Program-made: the position numbers and the translations under genes
Shown here: positions 4,053-22,299 of the stretch, piece by piece
Layout: each line of letters opens with the position of its first letter
How positions within the stretch are numbered: the stretch's first letter is position 1
From: a virus
Length of the DNA: 32,464 nucleotides
Virus record (IMG/VR): IMGVR_UViG_3300025138_007674
Span: 1-32,464 of that record
Strand: one strand, 5' to 3'
The notes under the pieces: model-generated
Database searches by the model: none
What the model saw: the letters and a program-made list of their open reading frames with translations, nothing else
What the model was told of the DNA's origin: nothing

Positions 4053-4508
4053 ATGGGATATTACTCTGAAGTAGCTAGAGATATCAATAAGATTCCCAAC
4101 GCAATTAAGTTCTTTGAAGACGAACTTATTGAGGCCCGAAGTGAAGTAAAACTAAAAGGCAATGTTGAACGTGCCGCGGCAGAAATGCCCGGTATCGTTG
4201 AACAGCGTTTCAATCAGTTACAAGAGATTGAAGCTATATTAAATTATCTAAATATTGAGCTACGTAGATTACGTAGTTCATTTTTTAAGAAATATCTTGA
4301 AAGTTATCAACGTGCTTTGTCCAGCAGAGATGTTGAAAAATATGTTGACGGCGAAGCAGACGTTGTTGACTATGAAAAGATTATTAATGAGTTTGCATTA
4401 CTTCGTAACAAATGGTTAGGCTTGTTGAAAGGTCTTGATCAAAAACAGTGGCAGATAACAAACGTTGTCAAACTGAGAGTTGCGGGTATGGAAGATGCAT
4501 CAGTATAA
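4053..4508 (+). CDS. uvsY: UvsY-like recombination mediator
   Basis: 151-residue helical protein in the place where T4-like phages keep UvsY, the mediator that loads UvsX onto gp32-covered DNA. The second half matches my recollection of cyanophage UvsY proteins: a YQRALSSRDVEKYVDGE segment, an INEFALLRNKWLGLLKGLD helix and the ending ITNVVKLRVAGMEDASV. There is no catalytic motif, as expected for this family. The start abuts the preceding stop (4050-4052); only a weak GGGAAG precedes it. Alternative: a conserved helical protein of unknown role. Neighbouring gp32 and uvsX support the call. Confidence 0.65.
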   Translation: MGYYSEVARDINKIPNAIKFFEDELIEARSEVKLKGNVERAAAEMPGIVEQRFNQLQEIEAILNYLNIELRRLRSSFFKKYLESYQRALSSRDVEKYVDGEADVVDYEKIINEFALLRNKWLGLLKGLDQKQWQITNVVKLRVAGMEDASV

Positions 4509-5271: not shown

Positions 5272-5948
5272 TGTATACTGAAATAGACGGATGGCGATCA
5301 CTTAAAAATGATATTTGTTTAAAGAGTGCAAAGAAGCAAGGTAATGGCGATATTAACAATTACCAAAATATAGAATTAATGACAGCAATGAGCTATTGTG
5401 CTAAGTGGCGTACAGCAGTTGATGTCGGTGCACATGTAGGTATCACAGCATTTCAAATGGCAAAAAGTTTTGAACATGTACACGCATATGAAATTAATCC
5501 AAAAATTTACGAATGTATGAACTATAACTTAGAGTCTCGTGCAGTAGGTAACGTAACAACATATCCTGTAGGACTTGGACAACGCAAACATAATGTTTCT
5601 ATTAAAACAACAAATAAAAGTTTTAGTACACACGTTGCTCCAGATGTTGAAGGAGGCGATATACCAATTATGCCTTTAGATTTTTATAATTTAGAAGATG
5701 TTGATTTTATCAAAATTGATGCAGAAGGGTATGAACCTTTTGTTGCACAAGGTGGCCTTGAAACTATTAAACGTTGCTCACCAATTATACTTTACGAATG
5801 TAAAGACCACCCAATACGTTATGGACATAACGCTGACACAATTAGACACATACTTGCACCACTTGGATATAGAATGATTAGAAAAATTGGCAGAGGAGAA
5901 AAAAATGCCATTATCGGATATAGACCAGGGATAGCAATTGATGTTTAA
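5271..5948 (+). CDS. FkbM-family SAM-dependent methyltransferase
   Basis: 225 residues. SAM-binding motif I is DVGAHVGITA at about 51-60, followed by the acidic HAYEINP strand that binds the ribose. The FkbM signature VDFIKIDAEGYEPFVAQGG is near 143-162. FkbM proteins O-methylate sugars and natural products, and this one probably methylates a hydroxyl of the glycan built by its neighbours. Its ATG overlaps the preceding stop by one base and its own end overlaps the next start by 8 bases, so translation is coupled. Confidence 0.88.
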   Translation: MYTEIDGWRSLKNDICLKSAKKQGNGDINNYQNIELMTAMSYCAKWRTAVDVGAHVGITAFQMAKSFEHVHAYEINPKIYECMNYNLESRAVGNVTTYPVGLGQRKHNVSIKTTNKSFSTHVAPDVEGGDIPIMPLDFYNLEDVDFIKIDAEGYEPFVAQGGLETIKRCSPIILYECKDHPIRYGHNADTIRHILAPLGYRMIRKIGRGEKNAIIGYRPGIAIDV

Positions 5949-6795
5949 ACTTCCTGAACTAAGAGGACATATGTGTCCTAGAGAAGAACCAAATATAATA
6001 TACTTTAGTTGCGACTACGATTACTTTGATCGACATGGATTTGCACTACAACAAAGTATTAATAGAACAGTAGGTTGGGTACACGTACATTGTCATATTA
6101 TTAATGAAGGGAATATTGATCACGCTCTCTTAAAAGACTTAATGGGCAGATACAAATTTACATATACTTGGGAAGATACTAACGAACAGTTTTATAAAGA
6201 CTTGCCTAAAAATAAAAATATGATGGGCGAAGGAATGCAAATTTTTAAAACTAGTGATATAGATTATATTGCTAGACGTACATACTTGGCTAGTGTAAGA
6301 TTCATACGTATGGCAGAAATATTTACATACCCACACCAAAGAGTATTACAGATTGATTGCGACAGTATATTACGTAACGGTTTCCACGGACACGAGTTTG
6401 AAGAAGTAACTAATGTTGTTGGTGTTATGCCTAAGCCAAAAGAACAACATATTTTTATTGCTAGTGCATTAAGTCCAGGCATAGATATTAAAGGTATCGA
6501 ATGGCGTAACTTATTTGCTAGAAGAATGATTACAGCATTTGAAAACGGATGTTATTGGTTTGTAGATCAAGTAGTACTACGACAAGTAATGGCTGAATGG
6601 AAGAATATGGGTAACGATTACAATCATATTGGATATAACTGGAATAGTTGGGGTATTAAAAAGAATAATGTTTTTAGTACAGGTAAAGGTAATAAAAAAG
6701 AAGGTTTGAAGTTTAAACAAGCACAATTAAAATGGTTACCACATCACTGGTATAAAGTAGTAATGAAAGAAATACAGGTAGAAACAACAAAATGA
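5941..6795 (+). CDS. Putative GT-A glycosyltransferase
   Basis: 284 residues from ATG 5941, with the TTG at 5938 as an alternative. The N-terminus (NIIYFSCDYDYFDRHGFALQQS) looks like a Rossmann-type start. Residues near 135-140 hold VLQIDCDSIL, a DxD motif of the type that binds the metal-nucleotide sugar in GT-A enzymes. A later FVDQVVLRQV segment is typical of GT8-like folds, and the protein ends with aromatic and basic residues. The sugar donor is unknown. It overlaps the genes on both sides. Confidence 0.65.
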   Translation: MFKLPELRGHMCPREEPNIIYFSCDYDYFDRHGFALQQSINRTVGWVHVHCHIINEGNIDHALLKDLMGRYKFTYTWEDTNEQFYKDLPKNKNMMGEGMQIFKTSDIDYIARRTYLASVRFIRMAEIFTYPHQRVLQIDCDSILRNGFHGHEFEEVTNVVGVMPKPKEQHIFIASALSPGIDIKGIEWRNLFARRMITAFENGCYWFVDQVVLRQVMAEWKNMGNDYNHIGYNWNSWGIKKNNVFSTGKGNKKEGLKFKQAQLKWLPHHWYKVVMKEIQVETTK

Positions 6796-7355
6796 TTGGA
6801 TACATAATCTATCTACCAAGTTATCCTAATAGTGTTAGTATGGCTAGTCGTGCATTAGAAACAGGAACTAAACATGGTTGGAATTTAGAATTGTATGAAG
6901 GCGTTAACGGTATGAAACAAGGCCTTGCTGATTGTAATTTAAAAGTATACCAACATAAAAAAGCAGAGCGTTTGCTTGCTCGACCAGGTACACAAGGATG
7001 TTTTTTAAGCCAATACTTGTTGTGGCAAAAATGCCACGAAACAAATACACCAATATGTATATTTGAACATGATGTTGTTTTTAAAAAACCAATGGGAGAA
7101 TATGAAGACTGTGATGTATATAAGTTTGAAGGATTTAAAAAAGCAAAACCTATACCTCCTGGCAACTGGTATGAAGGTGCTAGAGCTTATCGTATTACAC
7201 CATACGGAGCAAAGAAGATATTAAACTGGGTACATGCTAACGGAGCAATGCCCGCAGACTGGATGCTATGCGATGGAATTGTGGATATGAAGTTCGATAA
7301 GTATAGTAAAGTTACATACAAAACAAACGTAAGTTTTACAAAGGATCTATCATGA
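6792..7355 (+). CDS. GT25-like glycosyltransferase (LOS-type)
   Basis: 187 residues. It has the GT25 pattern of an early YIIYLPSYPNSVSMASRALET, then GCFLSQYLLWQKC (family form GCxxSH.x.W), then PICIFEHDVVF, where the acidic ExDxxF motif of this family sits. A late YRITPYGAKKIL block also fits. GT25 enzymes transfer galactose or other hexoses to lipooligosaccharide in bacteria. The ATG overlaps the preceding stop by 4 bases. A second, more diverged member lies at 12818. Confidence 0.78.
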   Translation: MIGYIIYLPSYPNSVSMASRALETGTKHGWNLELYEGVNGMKQGLADCNLKVYQHKKAERLLARPGTQGCFLSQYLLWQKCHETNTPICIFEHDVVFKKPMGEYEDCDVYKFEGFKKAKPIPPGNWYEGARAYRITPYGAKKILNWVHANGAMPADWMLCDGIVDMKFDKYSKVTYKTNVSFTKDLS

Positions 7356-8137
7356 AGAGAATGATTTATCAAGTAGCAGTTGGCGCACAAAGCAAACTGT
7401 ACTTGCATTGTATTGAAAGTGTAAGACAATACTGTGCAAAATACGGTATTGAACATATTGTACAAAACGATCCAATCTTAAAAATTAGGCCAGACATGGC
7501 TGTAACAGGACGTAGTAAAGAAGCCGTTGAGCGTCTTGGCTACATGCCTATATACGAAAAAGAAAATGCGTTTACACACTTACACAAATATGATCAAGTT
7601 GCAATAGTTGACAGTGACATTTATATTCGACCAACTGCACCAAATATATTTGAAGACTTAACAAATGAATATGCGTTTGGTGCTGTAGCAGAACGTGAAC
7701 TGCCTTGTGCTAAAAAATACAAAAGCAAAATTAGAAAATATTCGAAAGCCGCATTTGAAAACCTTACAGATGTAGATTGGAAATGGGATCATAGAGGTGC
7801 TGAGTTTTATAATATGGGAATGATGGTAATTAATTGTCAAAAATTTTTACCATTCTTACAAGGACAAACAGCAGAACAGTTTATACGTAGGCCAGAGTTT
7901 AAAGACTTTGTTGACGGTATTGGGTATCGCAAATGGTCAACCGATCAAATGTTACTCAACTATTGGGTAAAGAAAGAAAAGATTCCTACACTTAATATGG
8001 ACTGGAGATGGAATGGATTGTTTAAAGGTATTGATGATGCACAAATACCTAAGGCATATTTTATACATTTTTTCTTAAAAGATCTATTACCACAAAAAGG
8101 TGAGAACGTTGAAGACTTGATGCGGGTGATAAATTGA
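7352..8137 (+). CDS. Putative GT-A glycosyltransferase with DxD motif
   Basis: 261 residues. It contains YDQVAIVDSDIYI (DxD donor site, about 80-92), an EFYNMGMMVIN segment that resembles the acceptor side of GT8/GT-A enzymes, and STDQMLLNYWV with a late Asp-Gln pair common in GT8. The C-terminal HFFLKDLLPQ is compatible with a metal-binding His. Specificity is unknown. It starts inside the stop codon of the upstream gene and its stop overlaps the next start, so the cluster is translated as a chain. Confidence 0.65.
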   Translation: MKRMIYQVAVGAQSKLYLHCIESVRQYCAKYGIEHIVQNDPILKIRPDMAVTGRSKEAVERLGYMPIYEKENAFTHLHKYDQVAIVDSDIYIRPTAPNIFEDLTNEYAFGAVAERELPCAKKYKSKIRKYSKAAFENLTDVDWKWDHRGAEFYNMGMMVINCQKFLPFLQGQTAEQFIRRPEFKDFVDGIGYRKWSTDQMLLNYWVKKEKIPTLNMDWRWNGLFKGIDDAQIPKAYFIHFFLKDLLPQKGENVEDLMRVIN

Positions 8138-8892
8138 AACACTTAGTAATGAGAGCATATAGTACTGTAAAGAAAAACTTTCACTACGGTGCACCTGGAT
8201 TAGGAGACAGGATACACAGTGTATTACTATCATACAACTACGGACTAATAGAAAAAAGTCCAGTAACTTTACATCTTACAAAGTATCAATGGAATAGGCA
8301 CAAGCCAGAAAGTTGGCCAGAGATAATAAGTTTATTTCCTAAAGGAAGTGTTGCAATTATGCCACACCTTGATTGTGAGCCTACAGATAATGTAGACTTT
8401 GTTAACTATGTAAGACGTACTTACAACGGACATGCACAAATATATGCAGACTATCCGCAACGCTTTGAACCAAAAGAAGGCGTTGACTTAACGCCATACC
8501 TTACACACTTTCCGCAATTAGAAGCAGAACCACAAGACATTAAACTTCCTAAAAAGTTTATTACAGTACAATTTGATAGCACGTCTAAGAAGCGTATGAT
8601 TAAGCCTAAACAACGCCAAGCAATACTAGACAAGTATAAAGACTACGAAATAGTTGTAGTAGGTGGAGAATCAAAAGATGTACTATTAAGAGATAGTCTA
8701 AAACATATTGCATACGCTATGTCAAAAGCAACTTATCATGTTGGTGTTGACAGTGGCTTTTTGCATATGTCACAAGTTTACTTTCTTCCAGAGAACATTC
8801 ACATATATACACTGAGCCCTAAGGACCGCTGGAGTCATCACATGCATAGGGCTAAAGATAACGGGATTAAAATAAATGATGGTATCAATTGA
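8134..8892 (+). CDS. GT9-like (heptosyltransferase-type) glycosyltransferase
   Basis: 252 residues. The start is most likely TTG 8134, which overlaps the previous TGA as TTGA; ATG 8149 is an in-frame alternative without a ribosome site. The N-terminus GAPGLGDRIHSVLLSY resembles the GD/GDxL entry of GT9 and tyrosine-O-GT-like folds. The C-terminal half has IVVVGG and then ATYHVGVDSGFLHMSQ, close to the GxDSGxxHxA donor-site motif of ADP-heptose:LPS heptosyltransferases. It could add a heptose or a related sugar. The HldE-like protein at 14164 would suit such a donor, although the actual donor is not shown by the sequence. Confidence 0.65.
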   Translation: MKHLVMRAYSTVKKNFHYGAPGLGDRIHSVLLSYNYGLIEKSPVTLHLTKYQWNRHKPESWPEIISLFPKGSVAIMPHLDCEPTDNVDFVNYVRRTYNGHAQIYADYPQRFEPKEGVDLTPYLTHFPQLEAEPQDIKLPKKFITVQFDSTSKKRMIKPKQRQAILDKYKDYEIVVVGGESKDVLLRDSLKHIAYAMSKATYHVGVDSGFLHMSQVYFLPENIHIYTLSPKDRWSHHMHRAKDNGIKINDGIN

Positions 8893-9256
8893 AGTATCTG
8901 TTGGCGAACTATTTGACAAGATTACTATACTTAAGATTAAACAAAAGAAACTTATAAACCAAAACCAACTTGCAAACGTCAATAAAGAATTAGAATATTT
9001 AGAAGACAAAGCATTTACTAATGACCCAGAAGTTAATGTACTAGTAGAACAACTACAAGAAATTAACGAACAATTATGGGACATTGAAAACGGAAAACGT
9101 AAGTGTGAAGCTGATAAAAGTTTTGGATCAAAGTTTGTAGAACTTGCTAGAGATGTGTATATTAAAAATGATGATCGTGCAACAATTAAAAAATTAATTA
9201 ACGTAATTACAAAGTCAAGTATTGTAGAAGAAAAAGAATATACAAGGTACGAATGA
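8876..9256 (+). CDS. DUF6165 family protein
   Basis: 126 residues. The start VSIEVSVGELFDKITILKIKQKK and the end FVELARDVYIKNDDRATIKKLINVITKSSIVEEKEY match the DUF6165 family, which I know mainly from surface-polysaccharide loci. No enzymatic motif is seen; the protein is predicted helical and probably coiled. Two adjacent ATG codons (8876, 8879) are possible starts. It overlaps the GT9-like gene by 17 bases. It may be an accessory or scaffolding partner of the transferases, but this is inference from gene neighbourhoods. Confidence 0.75.
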   Translation: MMVSIEVSVGELFDKITILKIKQKKLINQNQLANVNKELEYLEDKAFTNDPEVNVLVEQLQEINEQLWDIENGKRKCEADKSFGSKFVELARDVYIKNDDRATIKKLINVITKSSIVEEKEYTRYE

Positions 9257-9612
9257 AATATTTTACTAGAAAAATGATTGCACACAAAGATCTAAACAGT
9301 AACGGCACACTGTTTGGAGGTCGTGTGTTAGACTGGATAGACGAAGAGGCTTACATTTATTGTAGCTGTCAGTTAGACAACGACAGAGTCGTTACAAGAG
9401 CAATGAGTAATATTGATTTCCACCATAGTGCAATACGAGGTGATATAATTGAAATTGGAATGGAGACTGTTAAACTAGGTACTACAAGCATAACTATTAA
9501 GTGTGATGTAAGGAATAAGCGAACAGAAAAAACAATTACAAGTGTAGATAGAATTGTTTTTGTAAACTTAGGAAAAGATGGTAGACCATCTCCGCATGGA
9601 ATTAAAAAATGA
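9253..9612 (+). CDS. Hot-dog acyl-CoA thioesterase (YciA-like)
   Basis: 119 residues, the length of a single hot-dog domain. The signature LNSNGTLFGGRVLDWIDEEAYIYC (residues about 14-37) contains the N-x-x-G-x-x-x-GG-x-x-x-x-W-D pattern of YciA/acyl-CoA hydrolases, with Asp28 in the catalytic place. It is followed by the VVTRAMSNIDFHHSAIRGDIIEI strand pair. It would hydrolyse acyl-CoA thioesters. In this cluster it could alternatively help acylate or deacylate a sugar precursor, which is inference. It is coupled by 4-base overlaps on both sides. Confidence 0.85.
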   Translation: MKYFTRKMIAHKDLNSNGTLFGGRVLDWIDEEAYIYCSCQLDNDRVVTRAMSNIDFHHSAIRGDIIEIGMETVKLGTTSITIKCDVRNKRTEKTITSVDRIVFVNLGKDGRPSPHGIKK

Positions 9613-10289
9613 AAAAACTGTTTATACATATTCCAAAAAATGCTGGTATGACTATACGTGGCAGTGAGTCATTCTTAGAACATATTATTCCTGTGCATCG
9701 CAAATGGATTGCAAATTTTAAAGACTTTAAACATACTATGGAAAGTTATAATGAACGTGATGTTAAAGGTGTAGAACATGCACGTTGGAGAGATGTTAGT
9801 AGTCATATTACAGATCAACATCAAGCGTTTGCTGTTGTACGTAATCCTTGGAGCAAAGTTGTTAGTAGATATTTGTTTGCTAAAGAAGCAGTACAAAGAG
9901 GTAATATAGATCCATCATACGCTGATACACGCTCACTAGAACATTTTTTAGGTGAACGTAATAAATGGATTGATAAAAAATATACATGGTATAGAGCTGT
10001 TAGAGGGTGGCATCCTCAGCTTGATCATGTAGTAGATAATGAAGGTAATGTACGTTGTGACATACTACGTGTTGAAAACTTAAAACAAGATACTATGGCA
10101 TATTTTGGTATGACGGAAATGCCAAGGTCAAGAAACGTAACAAGTATTAAAGAAGACTACAGAACATTGTACAACAGCAACACAATGCAACGTGTAGCAA
10201 AATGGTATAAGAAAGATATCGATCATTGGGACTTTGATTTTGATACAGGAGCAAGGAAAAATATATGGGCTGGAAAGATTACAAACTAG
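9609..10289 (+). CDS. Sulfotransferase family protein
   Basis: 226 residues. IHIPKNAGMTI at 6-16 is the 5'-phosphosulfate loop, and FAVVRNPWSKVVSRYLF at about 72-88 is the 3'-phosphate site of PAPS-dependent sulfotransferases of the carbohydrate type (Sulfotransfer_2-like). CDILRVENLKQD fits the later conserved strand. It probably transfers sulfate from PAPS to a hydroxyl of the glycan. No PAPS synthesis genes are in the window, so the host would supply the donor. It overlaps both neighbours. Confidence 0.85.
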   Translation: MKKLFIHIPKNAGMTIRGSESFLEHIIPVHRKWIANFKDFKHTMESYNERDVKGVEHARWRDVSSHITDQHQAFAVVRNPWSKVVSRYLFAKEAVQRGNIDPSYADTRSLEHFLGERNKWIDKKYTWYRAVRGWHPQLDHVVDNEGNVRCDILRVENLKQDTMAYFGMTEMPRSRNVTSIKEDYRTLYNSNTMQRVAKWYKKDIDHWDFDFDTGARKNIWAGKITN

Positions 10290-10957
10290 TTACATTTGGC
10301 TGTAGCTTTACATACGGTCATGGGCTTTCAGATTGCATAGCTGAAGATGGTTCAAATGGACCTACAGCTAGTAAGCAAGCATGGCCTAGCATATTAGGCA
10401 AACTTCAAGGAATGAAAATTGACAATGCATCAGAGCCAGGGTCAAGCAACTTAATGATCACTAAAGCAATAGTTGATTACTCTAAGTATACAAAAAATAC
10501 AGTAGTAGTTGTTATGTGGTCAAACAACGATAGAGAAACTATTTACAGTGACTATAACAAACGAAAATTACATATGTTACCTGGATTTTTAGATGATCAC
10601 ATGCCTAGAACTTTTTGGTTTGATAAAGACAAAAACAATTTTAAGAAAACAGTAACAACATATTACGAAAATTATCATGAAGACTGGAACGCAACATTAA
10701 ACCAAATGATTAGAATGAATTTTGTACATGCATTCCTTAAAAACAAAGGCATCAAAAGTTTTCATGTACAATCTAGACAACATGCAACAGACTTTAATTA
10801 CTTTGACAAATTCTTATTAAAGAATCTTAATTTTAAATATTTTAATTACAAAAAAGATTTTTTTATAGATGATGCATTAGATATACCTAAGCCGCATCCA
10901 GGTCCAAGAAGTCATGAACTCATAGCAACTAATATACAACATTGGTTTTTCAAATGA
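10265..10957 (+). CDS. SGNH/GDSL-type hydrolase
   Basis: 230 residues. Block I is VTFGCSFTYGHG with the nucleophile Ser14. Block II lies near NASEPGSSN, block III is MWSNNDRE (the GxND position), and block V is IPKPHPGPRSHE with the catalytic His. This order marks the SGNH esterase fold, whose members add or remove acetyl groups on polysaccharides. ATG 10265 with GGAA nearby overlaps the sulfotransferase by 25 bases. It is probably an O-acetyl esterase or transferase acting on the same glycan; the substrate is not shown. Confidence 0.72.
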   Translation: MGWKDYKLVTFGCSFTYGHGLSDCIAEDGSNGPTASKQAWPSILGKLQGMKIDNASEPGSSNLMITKAIVDYSKYTKNTVVVVMWSNNDRETIYSDYNKRKLHMLPGFLDDHMPRTFWFDKDKNNFKKTVTTYYENYHEDWNATLNQMIRMNFVHAFLKNKGIKSFHVQSRQHATDFNYFDKFLLKNLNFKYFNYKKDFFIDDALDIPKPHPGPRSHELIATNIQHWFFK

Positions 10958-11640
10958 ATATAGCAATTTGTATTAGCGGAGTTAATAACAAAGGTAGTAA
11001 CATTGTAGAACAACTACGACAAAAACTTCCAGGCTGTAATTTTTATTATCATACATGGACTAATAGAACAAATCTTATTCCACAAGACATGCACGAACGA
11101 TTGTCTACAATGCATTACCCTAAATGGCATTATCATCCTATGGAAGTATCACCACAGTCTAAGCATGCCAAGTACGCACAGTATGTAAAATCAAAAGAAT
11201 TATTTGACGATTTGTATTTTGGCATTGCTCCAATTATTGCACATGCTGATCATGTTACTAAGATTCCGCAACATCATGATTTAATTATTAGAGTTGATTG
11301 GAACACACAAATAGATAGACAAGTTGACCTGCACAATTGGTTACGCATGGCGCATGAAAAAGGACCTGTAGGTTTTATGACAAGACCAAATAGAGGACCT
11401 AAGTTTGGCTCAGGGTTAATAGAACAAGTAGATAAGACTAATCCACATGATGATTGGCACGGATTTTTACCTTGCGATTTTTTAATACATCATCGTAAAC
11501 ATTTTGATCGTGCGTTAGTACGTAAGTTAGTTAAAGAACATAAACTATATCCTAATGAATGGGGTTGGTATCAAGTAATGAGCGAATGGACTAATGATAT
11601 ACATACCAGTATGCATGGCTTCGTACAAAAGATAAAATAA
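10954..11640 (+). CDS. Putative glycosyltransferase-like protein
   Basis: 228 residues from ATG 10954, which overlaps the TGA of the previous gene; an upstream in-frame TTG (10942) is less likely. The start MNIAICISGV and the mid-segment HDLIIRVDWNTQI (an R-x-D type motif) resemble GT-A-like proteins such as the WavE group. A later LPCDFLIHHRKHFD block would fit the same group. The relation is weak, and I would only call it a member of the glycan cluster with a possible sugar-nucleotide-binding fold. Confidence 0.45.
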   Translation: MNIAICISGVNNKGSNIVEQLRQKLPGCNFYYHTWTNRTNLIPQDMHERLSTMHYPKWHYHPMEVSPQSKHAKYAQYVKSKELFDDLYFGIAPIIAHADHVTKIPQHHDLIIRVDWNTQIDRQVDLHNWLRMAHEKGPVGFMTRPNRGPKFGSGLIEQVDKTNPHDDWHGFLPCDFLIHHRKHFDRALVRKLVKEHKLYPNEWGWYQVMSEWTNDIHTSMHGFVQKIK

Positions 11641-11661
11641 GTAATTATAGGAGAGCATATT

Positions 11662-12234
11662 ATGATGTTTGGCAAAAATCCAGGAACAGACGCAACCTGG
11701 AAGCGTATACCAGAGTATAGTGTAGGAGCAGAGTTAGGAGTTTGGAAGGGCGAAAGTTCTGTTAAGTTCTTAAAACGTGCTAGCCACATACACTTAGTTG
11801 ACGCATGGGCACCTGAAGTATTTGAAGGATCAAATGAATTTGGCGGTTACCAAGCATACTTAGAACGCTATTCAAAACTTACAGGAGAAGCAACTACAGA
11901 AGGCTTCCAAAGATATTATGATAAGATATACGAAGGTGTAAAAAAGAGTTTTTACGGTAGACCTGTAACAATACATCGCATGTCAACAGCACAATGGTTT
12001 GATACATTTGATCAAAAACTAGATTGGATATATGTAGATGCAAGTCATGGATATGAAGGTTGCTTACACGACTTAACAAGAGCTGTTGGTATGATTAAGC
12101 CTGGCGGAAAACTATTTGGTGACGATTATGGACCTAACAAACTAGGTGTAAAAAATGCTGTAGATCAATTTATTAAGAACACAGGATACACACTAAACAA
12201 CTTCCACGACGATCAATTTGAGGTACAGCTATGA
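11662..12234 (+). CDS. Class I SAM methyltransferase (Methyltransf_24-like)
   Basis: 190 residues. Motif I is VGAELGVWKGESSVKFLK (about 21-38), followed by IHLVDAW for the ribose-binding acidic strand. WIYVDASHGYEGCLHDLTRA and MIKPGGKLFGDDYG are the metal-site and post-motif strands usual in Methyltransf_24/CmcI-like enzymes. The two Asp in GDDYG and the VDASH motif suggest metal-assisted O-methylation. It has a 21-base gap before it and a good AGGAG at 11649-11653, so this is a separately initiated reading frame inside the cluster. Confidence 0.82.
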   Translation: MMFGKNPGTDATWKRIPEYSVGAELGVWKGESSVKFLKRASHIHLVDAWAPEVFEGSNEFGGYQAYLERYSKLTGEATTEGFQRYYDKIYEGVKKSFYGRPVTIHRMSTAQWFDTFDQKLDWIYVDASHGYEGCLHDLTRAVGMIKPGGKLFGDDYGPNKLGVKNAVDQFIKNTGYTLNNFHDDQFEVQL

Positions 12235-12821
12235 GTATTATGGAACAACTATTTGACAAGTATGGGTGCGAAAAAATATGGCACAGCTACAGCGACTTGT
12301 ATGAAGCAGACTTTGAACCAATACGTAATGATGCTGTTAATATTTTAGAAGTAGGAACATTTAGAGGCGAAAGTATTAATGTATGGTTAGAATATTTTCC
12401 TAACGCTACAATTTACACTATTGATACGTTTGGTAGAGTTGCGCCTGAAGACTTGTCTATGCTTAAAGATCCAAGAGTAAGTTATGCTAAACTAGACAGT
12501 ACTGCTCCTGAATGTAACGAACACTTCAAAGCATTAGGACAGAAGTTTGATTTTATTATTGACGACGGATTACATACTCCTGAAGGACAACAAAAAACTT
12601 TTGACAATCTTATAGAGTTTACAGACACTTATTATGTTGAAGATGTATGGAACTTAGATAAAGTTAAAATGAGTCATCCTTGGATTAAAAGTCATCCAAC
12701 TGATTTTACATCTAAAAAATGGAACAAACTACTTGAATCAGTAGGCAAATATACAGTTACACATCACGACTGGCGTTCAAAGAAAAAGCAAGATAGTTAT
12801 ATCTTAAAAGTTGTAAAATGA
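12231..12821 (+). CDS. Class I SAM methyltransferase (cephalosporin-hydroxylase/mycinamicin-OMT-like)
   Basis: 196 residues. It opens with LFDKYGCEKIWHSYSDLYEADF, the substrate-lid pattern of macrolide/sugar O-methyltransferases. Then come NILEVGTFRGESINVWLEYFPN (SAM motif I), IYTIDTFGR, and FDFIIDDGLHTPEGQQKTFDNL, where the paired Asp and His bind metal. It is probably a sugar O-methyltransferase. It overlaps the preceding methyltransferase by 4 bases, and two consecutive methyltransferases suggest two positions on the glycan. Confidence 0.8.
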   Translation: MSIMEQLFDKYGCEKIWHSYSDLYEADFEPIRNDAVNILEVGTFRGESINVWLEYFPNATIYTIDTFGRVAPEDLSMLKDPRVSYAKLDSTAPECNEHFKALGQKFDFIIDDGLHTPEGQQKTFDNLIEFTDTYYVEDVWNLDKVKMSHPWIKSHPTDFTSKKWNKLLESVGKYTVTHHDWRSKKKQDSYILKVVK

Positions 12822-13477
12822 AAGCATTTGTAATATCTATCCCGGGCCATCAAGACAGTCAGATACATGCTGATACTTGTATTCAATCTGTAAAAGATAC
12901 AAACTCAGAACTAGACATTGAAAAGTTTACTGCTATTGTTCCTGAAACAATGTGGCAAGTAGATTGGAAATGGCCTTACACTAAGAAAAAAGTTTGTCCA
13001 ACAACAGGCATGACTCTTAAAGCATACAAGACATACGATATGTCCAAACGTATTGCGGCCGCAGGCAGTCATTATAAACTATGGCAAAAGAGTGTTGAGC
13101 TTAATGAAACTATTATGATACTTGAACATGATGCTATCTTTACAAGACAATTTAAGCCATTTAAGTTTGAAGGCGGTGCTATTAGTATTAACAATCCAGA
13201 CCATGCTACATTTAATTGGAAGCTATACGACAAACTAGATAACTCAGGCGAACAAGAAGTTCCTTGGGTAGCAGACAAAAATATTCCACAAGGATTACCG
13301 GGACATAGTGCTTATATTATCAAGCCAGATGCCGCAGAAAAGATATGTAGTTTGCAAGACACAATTGGCTGGTGGCCTAATGATGCTATTATGTGCAAAC
13401 AACTATGCACATGGTTACGTTCATACAAACCATATTTTACAAAAGTACAAGGGATAAAGTCAACAACAAGCAAATGA
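12818..13477 (+). CDS. GT25-like glycosyltransferase, second copy
   Basis: 219 residues. It shares with the product at 6792 the order: start AFVISIPGHQDSQIHADTCIQS, the AAAGSHYKLWQKSVE helix (GCxxSHxxLW position), MILEHDAIF (ExD donor site) and a late GHSAYIIKPDAAEKI block. It is longer and clearly diverged, so it probably has a different acceptor. The Ala-Ala-Ala at 13055-13063 is written GCG-GCC-GCA, creating one of three GCGGCCGC sites in the window. It ends with an ATGA overlap to the next gene. Confidence 0.72.
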   Translation: MKAFVISIPGHQDSQIHADTCIQSVKDTNSELDIEKFTAIVPETMWQVDWKWPYTKKKVCPTTGMTLKAYKTYDMSKRIAAAGSHYKLWQKSVELNETIMILEHDAIFTRQFKPFKFEGGAISINNPDHATFNWKLYDKLDNSGEQEVPWVADKNIPQGLPGHSAYIIKPDAAEKICSLQDTIGWWPNDAIMCKQLCTWLRSYKPYFTKVQGIKSTTSK

Positions 13478-14139
13478 TAAATTTACCAGAATATAGAAGC
13501 GACAGAAGTTTACAAAACTGCACAGGCGGAGATCTTCAATGGGCACAATCGATTCTTTTTGATGAATATACTGAATTTTGGACAAAGTATCATAGTGATA
13601 CTGTATATGCTATGGAAGGATACTTTCCTCCTAAAGATCGTAAAACAGCAGAAAAAGTTGCCTTTATAAACTATTTAAATTTAAAAAATAAAAGCAAATA
13701 TAAGATACTAGACATTGGTACAGGTTCAGGACAGTTTGTAAAGCTATGTAATACATTAGGACATACTGCAACAGGAACTGAAGTACAAAAGCGTTTAGAC
13801 GATCCTGTATATAAAATACATCAACACTATGATTTAAAATTATTTGAACTACAACTTATGCCTAGTGAATATGTTAAGTTACCTGATACATATGATGTTA
13901 TAACATTACTACGTACACAGTTTAACGATATTCGTACACGAGAATATAAAGAAGCAGACTGGCACTACTGGAAAGATAATATGTTTGACTATCTTAATCC
14001 AGGCGGACAGTTGTTTTTAAAAACAAATTTAAAGTTTCAAAAGTCAGTGATAGGCGGAATGCAAACAGAAATAATGAAAGCATTTGGAAAACCTATCAAA
14101 GGTTTTAACAGTTACACCTACCATTTCACAAAACACTAG
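13474..14139 (+). CDS. Class I SAM methyltransferase
   Basis: 221 residues from ATG 13474, which overlaps the previous TGA; the longer frame from 13393 would lie inside the upstream gene. Motif I is YKILDIGTGSGQFVKLCNTLG, followed by TATGTEVQKR, then YDVITLLRTQFNDI and MFDYLNPGGQLFLKTN (motifs IV and post-III). The acceptor is unknown, but a sugar or lipid in the glycan pathway is likely. A 24-base gap with a late-promoter-like box follows. Confidence 0.8.
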   Translation: MINLPEYRSDRSLQNCTGGDLQWAQSILFDEYTEFWTKYHSDTVYAMEGYFPPKDRKTAEKVAFINYLNLKNKSKYKILDIGTGSGQFVKLCNTLGHTATGTEVQKRLDDPVYKIHQHYDLKLFELQLMPSEYVKLPDTYDVITLLRTQFNDIRTREYKEADWHYWKDNMFDYLNPGGQLFLKTNLKFQKSVIGGMQTEIMKAFGKPIKGFNSYTYHFTKH

Positions 14140-14150
14140 TTAACTACTCA

Positions 14151-14158
14151 CATAAATA
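14151..14158 (+). promoter_or_regulatory. T4-late-type promoter box before the HldE-cupin gene
   Basis: CATAAATA matches the T4 late promoter TATAAATA in seven of eight bases and lies in one of the few gaps of the cluster. The ATG at 14164 is only five bases further on, so a transcript from here would have almost no leader. One box in an AT-rich genome can arise by chance; its position between genes is the main support. Confidence 0.45.
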
Positions 14159-14163
14159 TCAGT

Positions 14164-14949
14164 ATGGACGTAGTATTAGTTACAGGTGGATTTGACCCAC
14201 TACACTCAGGACACTTGGCTTATTTCAAAGCCGCAAAAGAATTAGGTGACAAACTAGTTGTTGGTATTAATAGTGACGAGTGGCTCACACGCAAAAAAGG
14301 CAGACCATTTATGCCGTTTCAAGAACGTGCTGAGATTATCAAAGGATTATCTATAGTTGATCAAATTATTAGTTTTGATGATTCGGATGATACAGCATGT
14401 GGTGCAATTTATAAAACACTAGCAACACATGGTGACATAAAAATTATTTTCGCTAATGGCGGCGATAGAACAGACGCTAACATTCCTGAGATGTCTACAT
14501 ACGAAAGCACACGTTATGTTGATTTTGTATTTGGTGTTGGTGGAGAAGATAAAAAGAATTCAAGCAGTTGGATACTTAAAGAATGGAAAGCACCTAAGAT
14601 AGAACGTGAATGGGGACACTATAGAGAACTATATCAAGGAGAAGGCTTTCAAGTTAAAGAACTTGTTATTGCTCCGCATAGTAAACTTAGTATGCAACGA
14701 CACAAACATCGTAGTGAAACATGGAACATAGTAAGTGGTAACGCACATATTAAGATGAATCATAGAAGTGGCGATCCATTTGATGGCTGTGTTGTACACA
14801 AACTACATCCTGCTAATCCTGTAGATATTCCAAAAGAAGTTTGGCACCAAGGATGTAACGATAGTGATGAGCCTGCACACATTGTAGAAGTGTGGAAAGG
14901 TGAAACAGATAAGTTGATAGAAGATGATATAGAAAGGTATGATCCATGA
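14164..14949 (+). CDS. HldE-like sugar nucleotidyltransferase fused to a ManC-type cupin
   Basis: 261 residues in two domains. Residues 1-145 form a cytidylyltransferase-like domain: TGGFDPLHSGHL with the HxGH signature (H14-x-x-H17), VVGINSDEWLTRKKGRPFMPFQERAEII, and SSSWIL at 133-138 in place of the ISSTS motif. This is the pattern of the HldE/RfaE C-terminal domain. Residues 150-260 form a cupin like the C-terminal phosphomannose-isomerase part of ManC: WGHYRELYQGEGFQVKELVI, QRHKHRSETWNIVSG (metal histidines), IPKEVWHQGCN and IEDDIERYD. The fusion suggests isomerisation or sugar recognition coupled to NMP-sugar activation. The substrate is unknown. Confidence 0.82.
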   Translation: MDVVLVTGGFDPLHSGHLAYFKAAKELGDKLVVGINSDEWLTRKKGRPFMPFQERAEIIKGLSIVDQIISFDDSDDTACGAIYKTLATHGDIKIIFANGGDRTDANIPEMSTYESTRYVDFVFGVGGEDKKNSSSWILKEWKAPKIEREWGHYRELYQGEGFQVKELVIAPHSKLSMQRHKHRSETWNIVSGNAHIKMNHRSGDPFDGCVVHKLHPANPVDIPKEVWHQGCNDSDEPAHIVEVWKGETDKLIEDDIERYDP

Positions 14950-15626
14950 AAGTATTCGTAGGATATGACACTAGAGAAGATATTGCTTACCAAGTATGTA
15001 AGCACAGTATTCTTGCAAGGAGTAAAGACGCTGAAGTAATTCCGCTTAAACAACAAGAACTAAGAGATGCCGGTTGGTACAAAAGACCTGTTGATAAACT
15101 TGCAAGTACAGAATTTACATTTACACGTTTCCTTATTCCTGAGCTAACTAATTTTAAAGGTTGGGCAGTGTTTATGGATAGTGATATGATATTAACAACA
15201 GACATTGCAGAACTGTTTGCACAAGCAGATGACAAGTACGCTATTATGTGTGTACAACATGATTATAAAGTAACTGAAACTACAAAGATGGATGGACAAA
15301 AACAAACAATCTATCCACGTAAAAATTGGAGTTCAATGGTATTATGGAACTGCGGACACCCTAGTAACAAAGTTGTTGATCAAGACTTTGTAAACGAAAC
15401 TGAACTTAATGGTGCATACATGCATCGCTTTAGTTGGTTGAAAGATGAAGAAATTGGTAGCATAGATCACACATGGAACTACTTAGTAGGTGTATATGAT
15501 GATATAAAAATGCCAAAACTAATACACTATACTGAAGGTGGCCCTTGGTTTGAAAATTATAGAGACTGTGAATTTCATGCTGAATGGAAAAATGAATTAT
15601 TTAATATGATGGAAGATGAGGTATAA
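14946..15626 (+). CDS. GT8-like glycosyltransferase
   Basis: 226 residues. The start KVFVGYDTREDIAYQVCKHSI is typical of a GT8-like bacterial group. GWAVFMDSDMIL (about 72-83) holds the DxD donor-metal motif, SSMVLWNCGHPSN the middle strand, and LIHYTEGGPWF the late His motif that completes the metal site. Retaining hexose transfer is usual in this family. It overlaps the nucleotidyltransferase-cupin gene by 4 bases. Confidence 0.8.
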   Translation: MKVFVGYDTREDIAYQVCKHSILARSKDAEVIPLKQQELRDAGWYKRPVDKLASTEFTFTRFLIPELTNFKGWAVFMDSDMILTTDIAELFAQADDKYAIMCVQHDYKVTETTKMDGQKQTIYPRKNWSSMVLWNCGHPSNKVVDQDFVNETELNGAYMHRFSWLKDEEIGSIDHTWNYLVGVYDDIKMPKLIHYTEGGPWFENYRDCEFHAEWKNELFNMMEDEV

Positions 15627-15631
15627 TATAT

Positions 15632-16495
15632 ATGGATAGGTATGCAAAGAAACCAGACGGTACTGAAATACCTAAGATGTTAATGCTAAATGGTGACGAT
15701 GAAATTATGAAGCATTGGCAACATGGTACTAACGCTTTAGTAATTGATAGGAAACAAATATCAAGTAAAATTAATGAAAGTCCTTGGCCTAATGATATTC
15801 CTGTAGCGTTTCGTAGCATGACTAAACGCAAAGAAATTTGGAAGTGTTGGGAAACTGGTAGACCGTTTTATTACATCGACAACGGATACATGGGCAACTT
15901 AATGAAGAAGAAAAAGTATTATAGAGTTGTAAAAAATAATATCCAACATACAAAAATAAAACCAAATACACCTAATGATAGATATCTTGATCTATGCCAG
16001 TTTGCTCCATACATGAACTATTACGGACGTAAACCACTACAAGGTGGTCCTATTTTATTAGTTACACCAAGTGAAAAGCCCTGCCAATTTTATAATATTG
16101 ATAAAAATACATGGCTTGAAGAAACAAAAATAGAACTTCGTAAACATACAGATCGTCCAATTATTGTTAGAGAAAAAGGATTGCGACCAGATAGGATTAG
16201 AGATAACAGTGTTGCCGCTCAATGTGCAAGAGATCAAATCTATGCAGTAGTAACATATCAAAGTATGGCCGCACTAGAAGCAATACACTATGGTATTCCT
16301 GCATTTACAACAGCTCTTAGTTGTGTTGATAGTGTTGCTAATCGTAACTTAGCAGATATAGAAAATCCAAATTATCCAGCAGAAGATAAATTTTTAAACG
16401 TAATGCATTACCTTGCTTATTGTCAATATACATTAGATGAAATGAATAGGGGTGTTGCATTGAAGATGATAGAGGAGATGGAGTTATATGACTAA
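15632..16495 (+). CDS. Putative GT-B-type glycosyltransferase, paralog 2 of 4
   Basis: 287 residues. It is closest to the product at 4495: PFYYIDNGYMGN and YYRVVKNNIQHTKI correspond to FFHLDNGYIGN and YYRISYNSLQNTKV. In the C-terminal half PIIVREKGLRPDRIRDN and VVTYQSMAALEAIHYGIPAFT correspond to the same blocks. Unlike paralog 1 it has the extra end module (SVANRNLADIENPNYPAEDKFLNVMHYLAYCQYTLDEM) shared with paralogs 3 and 4. GAGG at 15618-15621 serves as ribosome site. Confidence 0.6.
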   Translation: MDRYAKKPDGTEIPKMLMLNGDDEIMKHWQHGTNALVIDRKQISSKINESPWPNDIPVAFRSMTKRKEIWKCWETGRPFYYIDNGYMGNLMKKKKYYRVVKNNIQHTKIKPNTPNDRYLDLCQFAPYMNYYGRKPLQGGPILLVTPSEKPCQFYNIDKNTWLEETKIELRKHTDRPIIVREKGLRPDRIRDNSVAAQCARDQIYAVVTYQSMAALEAIHYGIPAFTTALSCVDSVANRNLADIENPNYPAEDKFLNVMHYLAYCQYTLDEMNRGVALKMIEEMELYD

Positions 16496-17429
16496 TCCAT
16501 TAAAAGTTAATGCATATATGAATGCAATCCCTCCAGGAAATAAAAATCCTGAAAAGCCTAAGCTATTAGAATACTTCGTTGAAGGCGTACAAGCATCAGG
16601 CGATAAAGGAAGAATTATTAATTCTTATACATATGAACCGTCAGATGTTGCTGTACTGCAAGGCTTTGTACATCCAGGAAGTAAGCATGTACCACATTTA
16701 AATTTAAGACGTAATGTATTAGATGGGCAAGCAGATATTAGTAAAAGAACTATTATTGCTGATAGTAATTTATTTCTAGCATACGATAAGGGCAATACAA
16801 AAACTTACTTACGGTATAGTTACGATGGCATTTTTCCTAATACAGGAGAATATTGTGATAGTCAAATTTTACCACAGCGTTGGGCAAACTTAAGAGATGA
16901 TTTAGGTCTTGTACTAAAACCCTATAAAAAGTATGGAGATTACATTTTAATTACATGTCAAAGAGATCAAGGTTGGAGTATGGACGGACTATCTGTAATC
17001 AATTGGTTACATGTATTGTTACAAGAAATTAGAAGATATACTGATAGAAAAATATTAGTTAGGTTTCATCCAGGTGATAAAAAAGTTGCAAAGCATGTAC
17101 AGCAACTAAGAGCAATTGGACATAAGGTAGATATATCAAGTCCTACTAGCACACTACTAAAAGATTTGCACGATGCATATGCTGTGATCAGTTACAATAG
17201 TAGCCCAGCAGTTGTAGCGGCAATTGAAGGCGTTCCTATCTTTGTACTTGATCCAAAAAGAAGTCAGTCAGCAGAAGTTGCAAATAGACATCTTAAGGAT
17301 ATCGAAAATCCAGAACTTGACTTTGATAGGGAAGCATGGTTAAGAAGACTAGCAATGATGCATTGGCGATTAGATGAACTACGCTCGGGAGAGTGTTGGA
17401 GACATATGAGGAGTTGGGCAAACAGATGA
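16488..17429 (+). CDS. Putative GT-B-type glycosyltransferase, paralog 3 of 4
   Basis: 313 residues, the longest of the four. The N-terminal half differs (DVAVLQGFVHPGSKHVPHL; IIADSNLFLAYDKG), but the C-terminal half carries ILVRFHPGDKKVAKHV, AVISYNSSPAVVAAIEGVPIFVLDP and the end module ANRHLKDIENPELDFDREAWLRRLAMMHWRLDELRSG. The shared Ser-rich SYNSSPA turn before a helix and the Gly-x-Pro after it mark the donor site seen in surface-polysaccharide GT-B-like enzymes. It overlaps the previous gene by 8 bases. Confidence 0.6.
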   Translation: MTNPLKVNAYMNAIPPGNKNPEKPKLLEYFVEGVQASGDKGRIINSYTYEPSDVAVLQGFVHPGSKHVPHLNLRRNVLDGQADISKRTIIADSNLFLAYDKGNTKTYLRYSYDGIFPNTGEYCDSQILPQRWANLRDDLGLVLKPYKKYGDYILITCQRDQGWSMDGLSVINWLHVLLQEIRRYTDRKILVRFHPGDKKVAKHVQQLRAIGHKVDISSPTSTLLKDLHDAYAVISYNSSPAVVAAIEGVPIFVLDPKRSQSAEVANRHLKDIENPELDFDREAWLRRLAMMHWRLDELRSGECWRHMRSWANR

Positions 17430-18274
17430 AAGAAATAACAGTACTAACAACATTCCATCAACCAGGATTAGAAAAATACGGACAGCGTATGATTAATAGC
17501 TTTGCTGAAAAAGTCGATCCTAGAATTAAATTAATTGTATATGCAGAGGATTGTAAACCTAATAATCCTAACGAAGAAAATATTTTAATTCTAGATGCAA
17601 AACAGTCTTTACCTAAACTAAATGCATTTAAAGCACGTTGGGGCAATGTAGACAAAGCAAATGGTATTCCACCAGATGATATTAAAGCAAGACGTCCACG
17701 TGATTGGCATAAGAAGTTTAAGTGGGACGCAGTACGTTTCGCTAATAAAGTTTATGCTGTATTTGATGCATGTGAAAATAATAAAGACTGGGTAGTGTGG
17801 ATGGACGCTGATACATTTGTACACAGCAATTGGAGTTATGAACAGTTTGCTGAACAACTACCAGATGATAAATGGATTACATATGTTGGTCGAGGTAAAG
17901 GGTCACAAACATGGCCAGAGTGCGGCTTCTATGGTATGAATATGAATCATCCAATGTGCGTACAGTTTTTAAAAGAGTTTGAAAGATTTTACGAAGATGC
18001 AGATAATGGTATCTTTGAATTAGAAGAATGGCACGACAGTTACGTGTTTGGACACATACTAAACTTAATGAGAAACATTGATGCTAGTGTACATGATTAC
18101 AGTGAACACATTTATGTACAGACTGCTAAGACTGGTGGAGGAGGACATCCACTTATTAACAGTGACTTAGGCAAATGGATTGATCATATGAAAGGCGGCC
18201 GCAAGGACGATGGACATTCGAAGCGTAAAGACCTAATGGGTAATCGCAACGAAGCGTATTGGAATGAAATTTAG
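17426..18274 (+). CDS. Putative GT-A glycosyltransferase
   Basis: 282 residues from ATG 17426, which overlaps the preceding TGA; the frame extends upstream to a TTG at 17393 with little support. KDWVVWMDADTFVHSNW holds the DxD motif. RDWHKKFKWDAVRFANKVYAVFDA precedes it as an acceptor-side helix, and the ECGFYGMNMNHP block follows. The C-terminal Gly/His-rich TAKTGGGGHPLINSDLGKWIDHMKGGRKDDGHS could complete the active site. Specificity is unknown. The adjacent GCGGCCGC at 18195-18202 is a rare octamer for this base composition. Confidence 0.65.
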   Translation: MKEITVLTTFHQPGLEKYGQRMINSFAEKVDPRIKLIVYAEDCKPNNPNEENILILDAKQSLPKLNAFKARWGNVDKANGIPPDDIKARRPRDWHKKFKWDAVRFANKVYAVFDACENNKDWVVWMDADTFVHSNWSYEQFAEQLPDDKWITYVGRGKGSQTWPECGFYGMNMNHPMCVQFLKEFERFYEDADNGIFELEEWHDSYVFGHILNLMRNIDASVHDYSEHIYVQTAKTGGGGHPLINSDLGKWIDHMKGGRKDDGHSKRKDLMGNRNEAYWNEI

Positions 18275-19100
18275 TTTATGGACGCAGTATGGCGCACTCA
18301 ATAGTAAGCCTGTTTTTGATGCTTTTGCAAATAGCCTTAACAATAACGGGCATGATGTTGCTTATAATGATCTTAGTGCCGATGTTAATGTTATTTGGAG
18401 CGTGTTGTTTAATGGAAGAATGGCTGGAAACAAAGCAGTCTGGGAACAACAAAAACCAACAATAGTATTAGAAGTAGGAGGCATTAATCGTGGCACTACA
18501 TGGAAGGTAGGACTAAATGGGATTAATAGAGATGCTTACTTTGGCCCTAGTGGTAATAGCTCTGATCGTATGCGTTTACTCGGCTTACAAGTAAAACCTT
18601 GGAAGTATAGCGGCGAACATATTCTTATAGCAGGACAACATGATAAGAGTTTACAATGGAAAGATATGCCCTCAATGTCTACTTGGGTACACGACACAAT
18701 AACATTTATTCGAGCTCAAACTGATCGACCTATTATATTTAGACCGCACCCACGCTGTCCTTTACCTGCTATCGAACACGACTTCAAAGGTGTAAAAAGA
18801 CAAGAACCCTTACAAATTAAAGGGTCTTATGATGACTTTGATATGCAATTCAATAACATATGGGCTACAGTTAGTTGGTCAAGTAACCCAGGTATACACA
18901 GTATAATTAACGGTGTACCTGCATTTACTGGTCCAAGCAGTCTTGCATTTGATGTAGCAGAACAAAACTTACGTAATATTGAGAATCCTTTATATGGTGA
19001 TAGAACACAATGGCTTAATGACTATGCACACACCGAATATACTATTGGAGAAATATCACAAGGAATTCCACTAAAACACTTGACTTCTAAGTTAATTTAA
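18264..19100 (+). CDS. Putative GT-B-type glycosyltransferase, paralog 4 of 4
   Basis: 278 residues. It shares with paralog 3 the core PIIFRPHPRCPLPAI, then ATVSWSSNPGIHSIINGVPAFTGPSS, and the end module VAEQNLRNIENPLYGDRTQWLNDYAHTEYTIGEISQGIPLKHL. The first half has NVIWSVLFNGRMAGNKAVWEQQ. It is the last gene of the glycan cluster; the next gene has its own promoter, whose -35 lies inside the end of this gene. It overlaps the previous gene by 11 bases. Confidence 0.6.
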   Translation: MKFSLWTQYGALNSKPVFDAFANSLNNNGHDVAYNDLSADVNVIWSVLFNGRMAGNKAVWEQQKPTIVLEVGGINRGTTWKVGLNGINRDAYFGPSGNSSDRMRLLGLQVKPWKYSGEHILIAGQHDKSLQWKDMPSMSTWVHDTITFIRAQTDRPIIFRPHPRCPLPAIEHDFKGVKRQEPLQIKGSYDDFDMQFNNIWATVSWSSNPGIHSIINGVPAFTGPSSLAFDVAEQNLRNIENPLYGDRTQWLNDYAHTEYTIGEISQGIPLKHLTSKLI

Positions 19101-22298: not shown

Positions 22299-22299
22299 A

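What the first reader, a model, noticed from the sequence alone, without database searches (positions are those of the whole stretch)
14164..14949. HldE-type nucleotidyltransferase fused to a ManC-type cupin
The two domains normally belong to different pathways: ADP/CDP-heptose activation and GDP-mannose/phosphomannose isomerisation. The fusion in one 261-residue chain suggests that a new sugar is both shaped and activated by one enzyme. A late-type promoter box lies just before it.
Basis: partly seen in the sequence, partly recalled or inferred. Interest (0 to 1): 0.55.

Follow-up and report, generated by a model that had tools for sequence, protein, structure and literature searches.

The report
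Phage copy of alternative GDP-mannose enzyme
A marine phage carries a small two-part enzyme that most likely makes the activated sugar GDP-mannose using an unrelated catalytic domain in place of the textbook one, and abundant ocean bacteria seem to use the same substitute.

Summary
The fusion is real. One 261-residue ORF (14164-14949) joins an HxGH nucleotidyltransferase (NTase) to a ManC-type phosphomannose-isomerase (PMI) cupin. The 80 viral loci kept by the search are fused in one frame as well, so it is not a sequencing error. The "late promoter" box is at chance level.

The "new sugar from two mixed pathways" reading is probably wrong. The same fused gene is chromosomal in SAR11, SAR86 and Patescibacteria. 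Natural rearrangements place the NTase in the guanylyltransferase slot of GDP-mannose synthesis: fused to PMI; to PMI plus GDP-mannose dehydratase; to phosphomannomutase beside two GH130 mannoside phosphorylases. Its carriers lack the normal enzyme. Among 117 SAR11-order genomes, 58 have ManC, 48 have NTase-cupin, none has both. Among 239 Patescibacteria, 39 have a strong NTase match; none of these has a ManC guanylyltransferase domain, against 116 of 239 overall.

Best reading: a ManC analogue, PMI plus an unrelated HxGH-fold mannose-1-phosphate guanylyltransferase, carried by a probably jumbo-like phage in its glycan island. The chemistry is inferred, not assayed. The SAR11 split is clade-level, so its P-value overstates independence.

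The parts
14164..14949 (+). Fused NTase-cupin gene (261 aa plus stop)
   Evidence: 80 viral loci kept with the same one-frame fusion
14164..14586 (+). N-terminal HxGH nucleotidyltransferase domain (residues 1-141)
   Evidence: Pfam PF01467 6-78; single-domain cyanophage relatives end at residue 138-141; fold matches 3glv, 2b7l, 1coz, 5xf2, 5x3d
14203..14214 (+). HSGH nucleotide-binding motif, residues 14-17
   Evidence: H14, S15 and H17 52/52, G16 51/52
14557..14577 (+). NSSSWIL motif, residues 132-138; in the place of the RTxGISTT motif of the HxGH superfamily (motif name recalled)
   Evidence: 52/52 at each position; SSS also invariant in 12 sequences from Patescibacteria, SAR11, SAR86, Woeseia and viruses
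14596..14943 (+). C-terminal PMI-type cupin domain (residues 145-260)
   Evidence: Pfam PF01050; fold match to Thermococcus phosphomannose isomerase 7zvm/7zvy, Z 15.8
14695..14847 (+). Likely metal ligands Q178, H180, E185, H228 (Gln-His-Glu-His, as recalled for type I PMI)
   Evidence: Q178, H180, E185, H228 invariant 52/52; the second His of HxH (182) kept in 18 of 52. Metal binding itself untested.
14946..15626 (+). GT8-like glycosyltransferase gene, start overlapping the stop of the fused gene (ATGA)
   Evidence: relatives at +1 or +2 in 63 of the 161 loci examined (51 at +1, 12 at +2)
4480..19100 (+). Glycan island around the gene: glycosyltransferase, methyltransferase and sulfotransferase-like genes and many ORFs without a Pfam match

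Best explanation
The gene encodes a bifunctional enzyme that works like ManC. The C-terminal cupin isomerises fructose-6-phosphate to mannose-6-phosphate (PMI). A host phosphomannomutase makes mannose-1-phosphate. The N-terminal HxGH nucleotidyltransferase then joins GTP and mannose-1-phosphate to give GDP-mannose and pyrophosphate. That last step is normally done by the unrelated GT-A-like domain of ManC, so this is a non-homologous replacement of that domain next to the same kind of PMI partner. Shown here: both domains, their fusion, the conserved active-site residues, the gene-order and fusion links to PMI, PMM, Gmd and GH130, and the mutual exclusion with ManC in the sampled genomes. Inferred: the substrates, GTP as donor, and that the viral copy, in a glycan island of a probably jumbo-like phage, feeds the glycosyltransferases next to it.
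For: Fusions: NTase-PMI cupin; NTase-PMI-Gmd in one frame, L154; NTase-PMM (PF03332, E 8.2e-15) beside two GH130 genes, L217. Neighbours: NTase, one gene, PMI cupin, two GH130 genes in L209 and L210; NTase then a PMM-type HAD in L225; Gmd within 3.5 kb of the cupin or in its frame in 7 of 15 Gmd-bearing genomes. Exclusion: 24 of 24 chosen carriers lack the ManC guanylyltransferase part, two of them with Gmd have no PF00483 protein at all at E 1e-5; 0 of 39 strong-NTase Patescibacteria against 116 of 239 overall; 58 ManC, 48 NTase-cupin, 0 both in 117 Pelagibacterales; 12 ManC, 47 cupin-only frames, 0 both in 91 of the SAR86 order. Fold: cupin like Thermococcus PMI.
Against: No assay. The nearest solved NTase relatives use CTP or ATP (substrates from family knowledge). 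Specificity cannot be read from the sequence. 17 of 63 Patescibacteria with Gmd over cut-off have neither enzyme. At 99 bits or more, 12 of 39 NTase carriers have Gmd at E 1e-60 and 27 do not; several standalone NTases sit beside unrelated housekeeping genes. At a 60-bit threshold 14 of 57 NTase genomes also have ManC, and the 99-bit threshold was set after seeing the list. The SAR11 split follows clades. TIGR01479 does not cover other guanylyltransferase types, and some PF00483 proteins in carriers stay unclassified. The viral cupin has lost the second His of HxH in 34 of 52 sequences.
Confidence: 0.65

Rival explanations
1. Heptose activator: the cupin isomerises sedoheptulose-7-phosphate (GmhA-like work) and the NTase makes an ADP-, CDP- or GDP-heptose from heptose-1-phosphate, as the HldE name suggests.
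For: NTase best NCBIfam match is the HldE domain; PHROG 7878 carries the heptose name; fold match to HldC 5xf2.
Against: HldE match is far below cut-off, 72 of 181.5 bits. Fusion partners and neighbours are PMI, PMM, Gmd and GH130. Mutual exclusion with ManC has no reason under this reading. No heptose kinase was recognised among the neighbours listed, though a genome-wide search for one was not made.
Confidence: 0.15
2. The NTase activates another substrate with CTP (glycerol- or polyol-phosphate, or a phosphonate), and the cupin is a sugar epimerase or oxygenase unrelated to PMI work.
For: Fold and sequence matches to glycerol-3-phosphate and ethanolamine-phosphate cytidylyltransferases and to Fom1; the CapF cupin scores as high as PMI; NTase-only copies in cyanophages and some Patescibacteria lie away from mannose genes.
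Against: TIGR01518 (glycerol-3-phosphate cytidylyltransferase) 48.8 of 165.4 bits. Cupin belongs to MannoseP_isomer over cut-off and the genome evidence points to GDP-mannose.
Confidence: 0.13
3. One reading: a new sugar is shaped by the cupin and activated by the NTase, combining two pathways in one phage enzyme.
For: The fused viral form has diverged in the cupin and is absent as a fusion from sequenced phages in the collection searched.
Against: The fused gene is chromosomal in SAR11, SAR86 and Patescibacteria and tracks one known pathway.
Confidence: 0.06
4. Sequencing or assembly artefact that joined two genes.
For: Separate NTase and cupin genes exist in some distant bacteria.
Against: 81 of 81 viral copies, the window's own included, and 48 SAR11-order genomes carry the two domains in one open frame.
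Confidence: 0.01

Closest known systems
ManC / AlgA, bifunctional mannose-1-phosphate guanylyltransferase / mannose-6-phosphate isomerase (TIGR01479)
   Same: Same C-terminal PMI cupin family (PF01050) and same position relative to it; found as its replacement in the sampled genomes
   Different: N-terminal catalytic domain is HxGH CTP_transf_like (PF01467) instead of NTP_transferase (PF00483); 261 aa instead of about 400-470
HldE C-terminal domain / HldC, heptose-1-phosphate adenylyltransferase (TIGR02199)
   Same: Same HxGH nucleotidyltransferase superfamily; HldC structure 5xf2 fits the NTase domain with Z 13.5
   Different: Score 72 against cut-off 181.5; no kinase domain in the ORF; partner is a PMI cupin; the KxxSSS stretch stands where RTxGISTT is expected (motif recalled)
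Glycerol-3-phosphate cytidylyltransferase TagD (TIGR01518; 1coz, 2b7l)
   Same: Fold (Z 14.3-14.6)
   Different: 48.8 bits against cut-off 165.4; no cupin
Thermococcus phosphomannose isomerase (7zvm, 7zvy)
   Same: Single-domain cupin PMI whose structure fits residues 144-259 (Z 15.8, rmsd 1.5-1.6)
   Different: No NTase domain
Standalone cyanophage NTase (P-TIM68, S-SSM7, Sf-FS3; PHROG 7878)
   Same: 51-57% identical over the NTase domain
   Different: No cupin; lies just after DNA polymerase gp43, or one small gene away

Membership tests
ManC (GMP_PMI, TIGR01479) | N-terminal NTP_transferase (PF00483) guanylyltransferase domain | tested here: not met
   No PF00483 match; TIGR01479 matches only 358-461 of 467, 62 of 372.95 bits
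ManC (GMP_PMI, TIGR01479) | C-terminal PMI cupin (PF01050) | tested here: met
   E 1.2e-18, over cut-off; fold match to PMI
ManC (GMP_PMI, TIGR01479) | GDP-mannose and mannose-6-phosphate activities | not testable with these tools
   Inferred only from fusions, neighbours and exclusion
HldE nucleotidyltransferase domain (TIGR02199) | Score over the curated cut-off | tested here: not met
   72 of 181.5 bits
HldE nucleotidyltransferase domain (TIGR02199) | HxGH motif of the superfamily | tested here: met
   HSGH at 14-17, both His 52/52
HldE bifunctional enzyme | N-terminal heptose kinase domain in the same chain | tested here: not met
   ORF starts with the NTase; no kinase family matched
Glycerol-3-phosphate cytidylyltransferase (TIGR01518) | Score over the curated cut-off | tested here: not met
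   48.8 of 165.4 bits
PMI cupin, metal site | Four ligands Gln, His, Glu, His (set recalled from type I PMI) | tested here: inconclusive
   Q178, H180, E185, H228 invariant 52/52, second His of HxH 18/52; mapping onto a solved PMI metal site not done

The most novel reading that the evidence does not exclude
An unrecognised, non-homologous family of GDP-mannose pyrophosphorylase (HxGH fold) has replaced the catalytic domain of ManC in large parts of SAR11, SAR86 and Patescibacteria, and phages with a UvsX closest to jumbo phages carry the fused form to supply their own glycan genes.
Probability: 0.62. Interest if true: 0.75.

Novelty: new variant of a known kind. Interest (0 to 1): 0.6.

Why it matters
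GDP-mannose is a central sugar donor. If true, an unannotated enzyme family fills a gap in the metabolism of some of the most abundant ocean bacteria, genes now labelled heptose or glycerol-phosphate enzymes in marine phages need renaming, and a clear case of fold replacement inside a conserved two-domain enzyme becomes directly testable with a single purified protein.

Tried and rejected
Late promoter: CATAAATA upstream is not above chance. Sequencing or assembly artefact: rejected. Search for the fused gene in sequenced phages: 39 records match but none over 80% of the query, so cultured-phage annotation gave no function. In-place swap of ManC's first domain in SAR11: not supported; ManC lies after valS-ilvD (ten ManC loci read; names by eye) and NTase-cupin after polA, and in the cupin tree the two cupins do not group. 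A link to DNA replication from the polA neighbour in SAR11 and the gp43 neighbour in cyanophages: considered and dropped, because SAR86, Patescibacteria and the window show no such neighbour. Foldseek/VIA on the whole model fills mainly with cupins; NTase matches appear but the list is not exhaustive. A PDB sequence search with a SAR11 cupin to map the metal ligands listed the PMI chains but the alignments printed were of other cupins, so the mapping was not made. Papers: nine searches of the open-access library found no description of an HxGH-type GDP-mannose pyrophosphorylase or of this fusion (listings only). Four papers were opened for passages only: PMC11898729 (no hit for the terms), PMC8231724, PMC7304191, PMC8066274. 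Subscription journals are not covered. Recalled, from no call: the RTxGISTT motif, the type I PMI ligand set, the substrates of the solved NTase relatives and the product of GH130 enzymes. Gene names of neighbours not covered were given by eye.

Full report
What is there. Window 14164-14949 (+) is a single 261-codon ORF. Residues 6-78 match Pfam CTP_transf_like (E 3.1e-14) and residues 145-260 match MannoseP_isomer (E 1.2e-18), both over their cut-offs. It overlaps the next gene, a GT8-like glycosyltransferase, by ATGA. The record is a 32,464-base virus fragment whose UvsX is closest to those of jumbo phages such as Sinorhizobium phage Phosso, Vibrio phage 2.275.O and Agrobacterium phage Atu_ph07 (59-66% identity in the 15 rows listed). 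The gene lies in a run of glycosyltransferase, methyltransferase and sulfotransferase-like genes. The proposed late promoter box is at chance level.

Not an artefact. Of 240 viral relatives found in IMG/VR, the 80 kept all carry both domains in one open frame, as does the window's own copy. In 52 distinct sequences the residues of GGFDPxHSGH and NSSSWIL are invariant or nearly so, and in the cupin Q178, H180, E185 and H228 are 52/52 while the second His of the HxH pair is kept in only 18. Sequenced phages hold only the single domains: 39 records match, none over 80% of the query. Three cyanophages read have a standalone NTase just after DNA polymerase or one small gene after it.

Fold. An AlphaFold model from 23 sequences has mean pLDDT 89.2 but pTM 0.55, so the mutual placing of the domains is unsure. 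The cupin fits solved Thermococcus phosphomannose isomerases (7zvm and 7zvy, Z 15.8, rmsd 1.6 and 1.5 A) and the CapF cupin (Z up to 16.1); the NTase fits 3glv, glycerol-3-phosphate cytidylyltransferases, HldC and the Fom1 cytidylyltransferase domain (Z 13.5-14.7). A shared fold does not tell the substrate.

Bacterial relatives. Besides phage-like contigs binned in MAGs, these include 33 Pelagibacteraceae loci, in all 33 of which the gene follows polA and precedes an MFS-transporter-like gene (names by eye), many SAR86 loci and several Patescibacteria. Five loci (L149, L151, L161, L163, L165) match the NTase alone, and L145 (Elusimicrobium) has NTase and cupin as two adjacent ORFs.

Rosetta-stone evidence. 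L154 (Patescibacteria) is an in-frame NTase, cupin and GDP-mannose-4,6-dehydratase chain (PF01467, PF01050, PF16363) followed by a GDP-fucose-synthase-like gene (by eye). L217 is an NTase fused to a eukaryotic-type phosphomannomutase (PF03332, E 8.2e-15) next to two GH130 mannoside phosphorylases, enzymes whose product is mannose-1-phosphate (family knowledge). L209 and L210 have NTase, one gene, cupin and two GH130 genes in a row. L225 has an NTase followed by a PMM-type HAD (PF03332, E 3e-9). In 7 of the 15 Gmd-bearing genomes of the 24-genome set, Gmd lies within 3.5 kb of the cupin or in its frame (G001, G002, G003, G006, G007, G009, G011). Each neighbouring step of GDP-mannose metabolism thus turns up fused or adjacent, and the NTase occupies the one slot left, the guanylyltransferase.

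The canonical enzyme is missing. In 24 chosen genomes with the gene, TIGR01479 (ManC) matched only the cupin part in all 24, none over cut-off, while 15 of 24 have Gmd, 13 over cut-off. Of the 15 Gmd genomes, two (G005, G011) hold no PF00483 protein at E 1e-5. Of the PF00483 proteins in the others, 10 of 40 rows were scanned: they resemble RmlA, RfbF (over cut-off), GlmU, archaeal GlmU-like, MurU and a CBS-linked type, and none passes the mycobacterial mannose-1-phosphate guanylyltransferase cut-off; some stay unclassified.

Mutual exclusion. In 239 Patescibacteria genomes, 116 have a match to the ManC guanylyltransferase part. Of the 39 with an NTase match of 99 bits or more, none does (Fisher 1.8e-13); of the 24 at 170 bits or more, none does. 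At 60 bits, where other HxGH families probably enter, 14 of 57 do. The threshold was set after seeing the list. Within 63 genomes with Gmd over cut-off, 37 have GMP only, 9 NTase only, none both, and 17 neither. In 117 Pelagibacterales genomes, 58 carry ManC, 48 carry full NTase-cupin, none carries both, one (G277) is cut by a contig end and 10 have neither. ManC sits after valS-ilvD in the ten loci read and NTase-cupin after polA. IlvD identity to a ManC-type reference is 77-100% in the ManC group and 75-76% in nearly all of the NTase-cupin group that has a match (one short fragment reads 83%), so the split follows clades and counts as one or few events; the Fisher value of 1.8e-22 must not be read as that many independent cases. 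In 91 genomes of the SAR86 order, 12 carry ManC, 47 carry a cupin-only match, nearly all in frames of 253-291 aa, none both, and 32 neither (Fisher 6.7e-5); there the NTase half was inferred from frame length in this search, except for members already seen. All these genomes are mostly single-cell or metagenome assemblies, so absence is weaker evidence than presence.

History. In the NTase tree (113 rows, 146 columns, many forks unresolved) the viral copies form one clade (97/95) beside a SAR11, gammaproteobacterial and cyanophage clade, with Patescibacteria apart; fused and standalone forms are interspersed. In the cupin tree SAR11 ManC cupins do not group with SAR11 NTase-cupin cupins, and the main SAR86 cupins nest among viral ones.

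Conclusion. The finding is a real, conserved fusion whose most likely work is that of ManC with a non-homologous guanylyltransferase domain. It is not a member of the ManC family by the domain test, because the PF00483 domain is absent, and not a member of HldE by score, but it probably works like ManC. The chemistry, the nucleotide and the phage use are inferred. I found no paper describing it in nine searches of an open-access library, which does not cover subscription journals.

Noticed in passing
window 23976-26378: A Kdo-8-phosphate synthase (NF003543, 331.8 bits, over its cut-off of 242), a uroporphyrinogen-decarboxylase-like gene (Pfam URO-D) and a CMP-Kdo-synthetase-like gene (below NCBIfam cut-offs) lie in a row; the phage may also make CMP-Kdo.
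   Followed up: partly
window 22662-23378: Queuosine-precursor transporter family protein (TIGR00697, over cut-off) in a phage: possible link to 7-deazaguanine modification.
   Followed up: no
window 22282-22650 and 23650-23979: Two further single-domain cupin genes (Cupin_2), not PMI-type by cut-off.
   Followed up: no
window 9253-9612: Hot-dog (4HBT) thioesterase gene, YciA-like below cut-off, inside the glycan island.
   Followed up: no
L107, L121, L128, L130 and related SAR86 loci: In the cupin tree the cupins of the main SAR86 NTase-cupin group nest within a mainly viral clade (100/99), while their NTase domains do not: possible phage-host exchange of one domain.
   Followed up: partly
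L082, L083, L084 and L088-L127, L153: NTase genes follow a DNA polymerase in two unrelated settings: gp43 in three cyanophages and polA in 33 of 33 SAR11 loci. No explanation beyond chance was found.
   Followed up: partly
L228:2380-4707 (-): A GDP-mannose dehydratase fused to a C-methyltransferase in a Patescibacteria genome (G157) without a ManC match or strong NTase match.
   Followed up: no
L087, L095, L129, L137, L147, L149: Contigs binned as Marinimicrobia, Rhodobacteraceae, Bacteroidetes or Rickettsiales carry phage-like or island-like gene sets around the gene and look like viral contigs in bacterial MAGs (by eye).
   Followed up: partly
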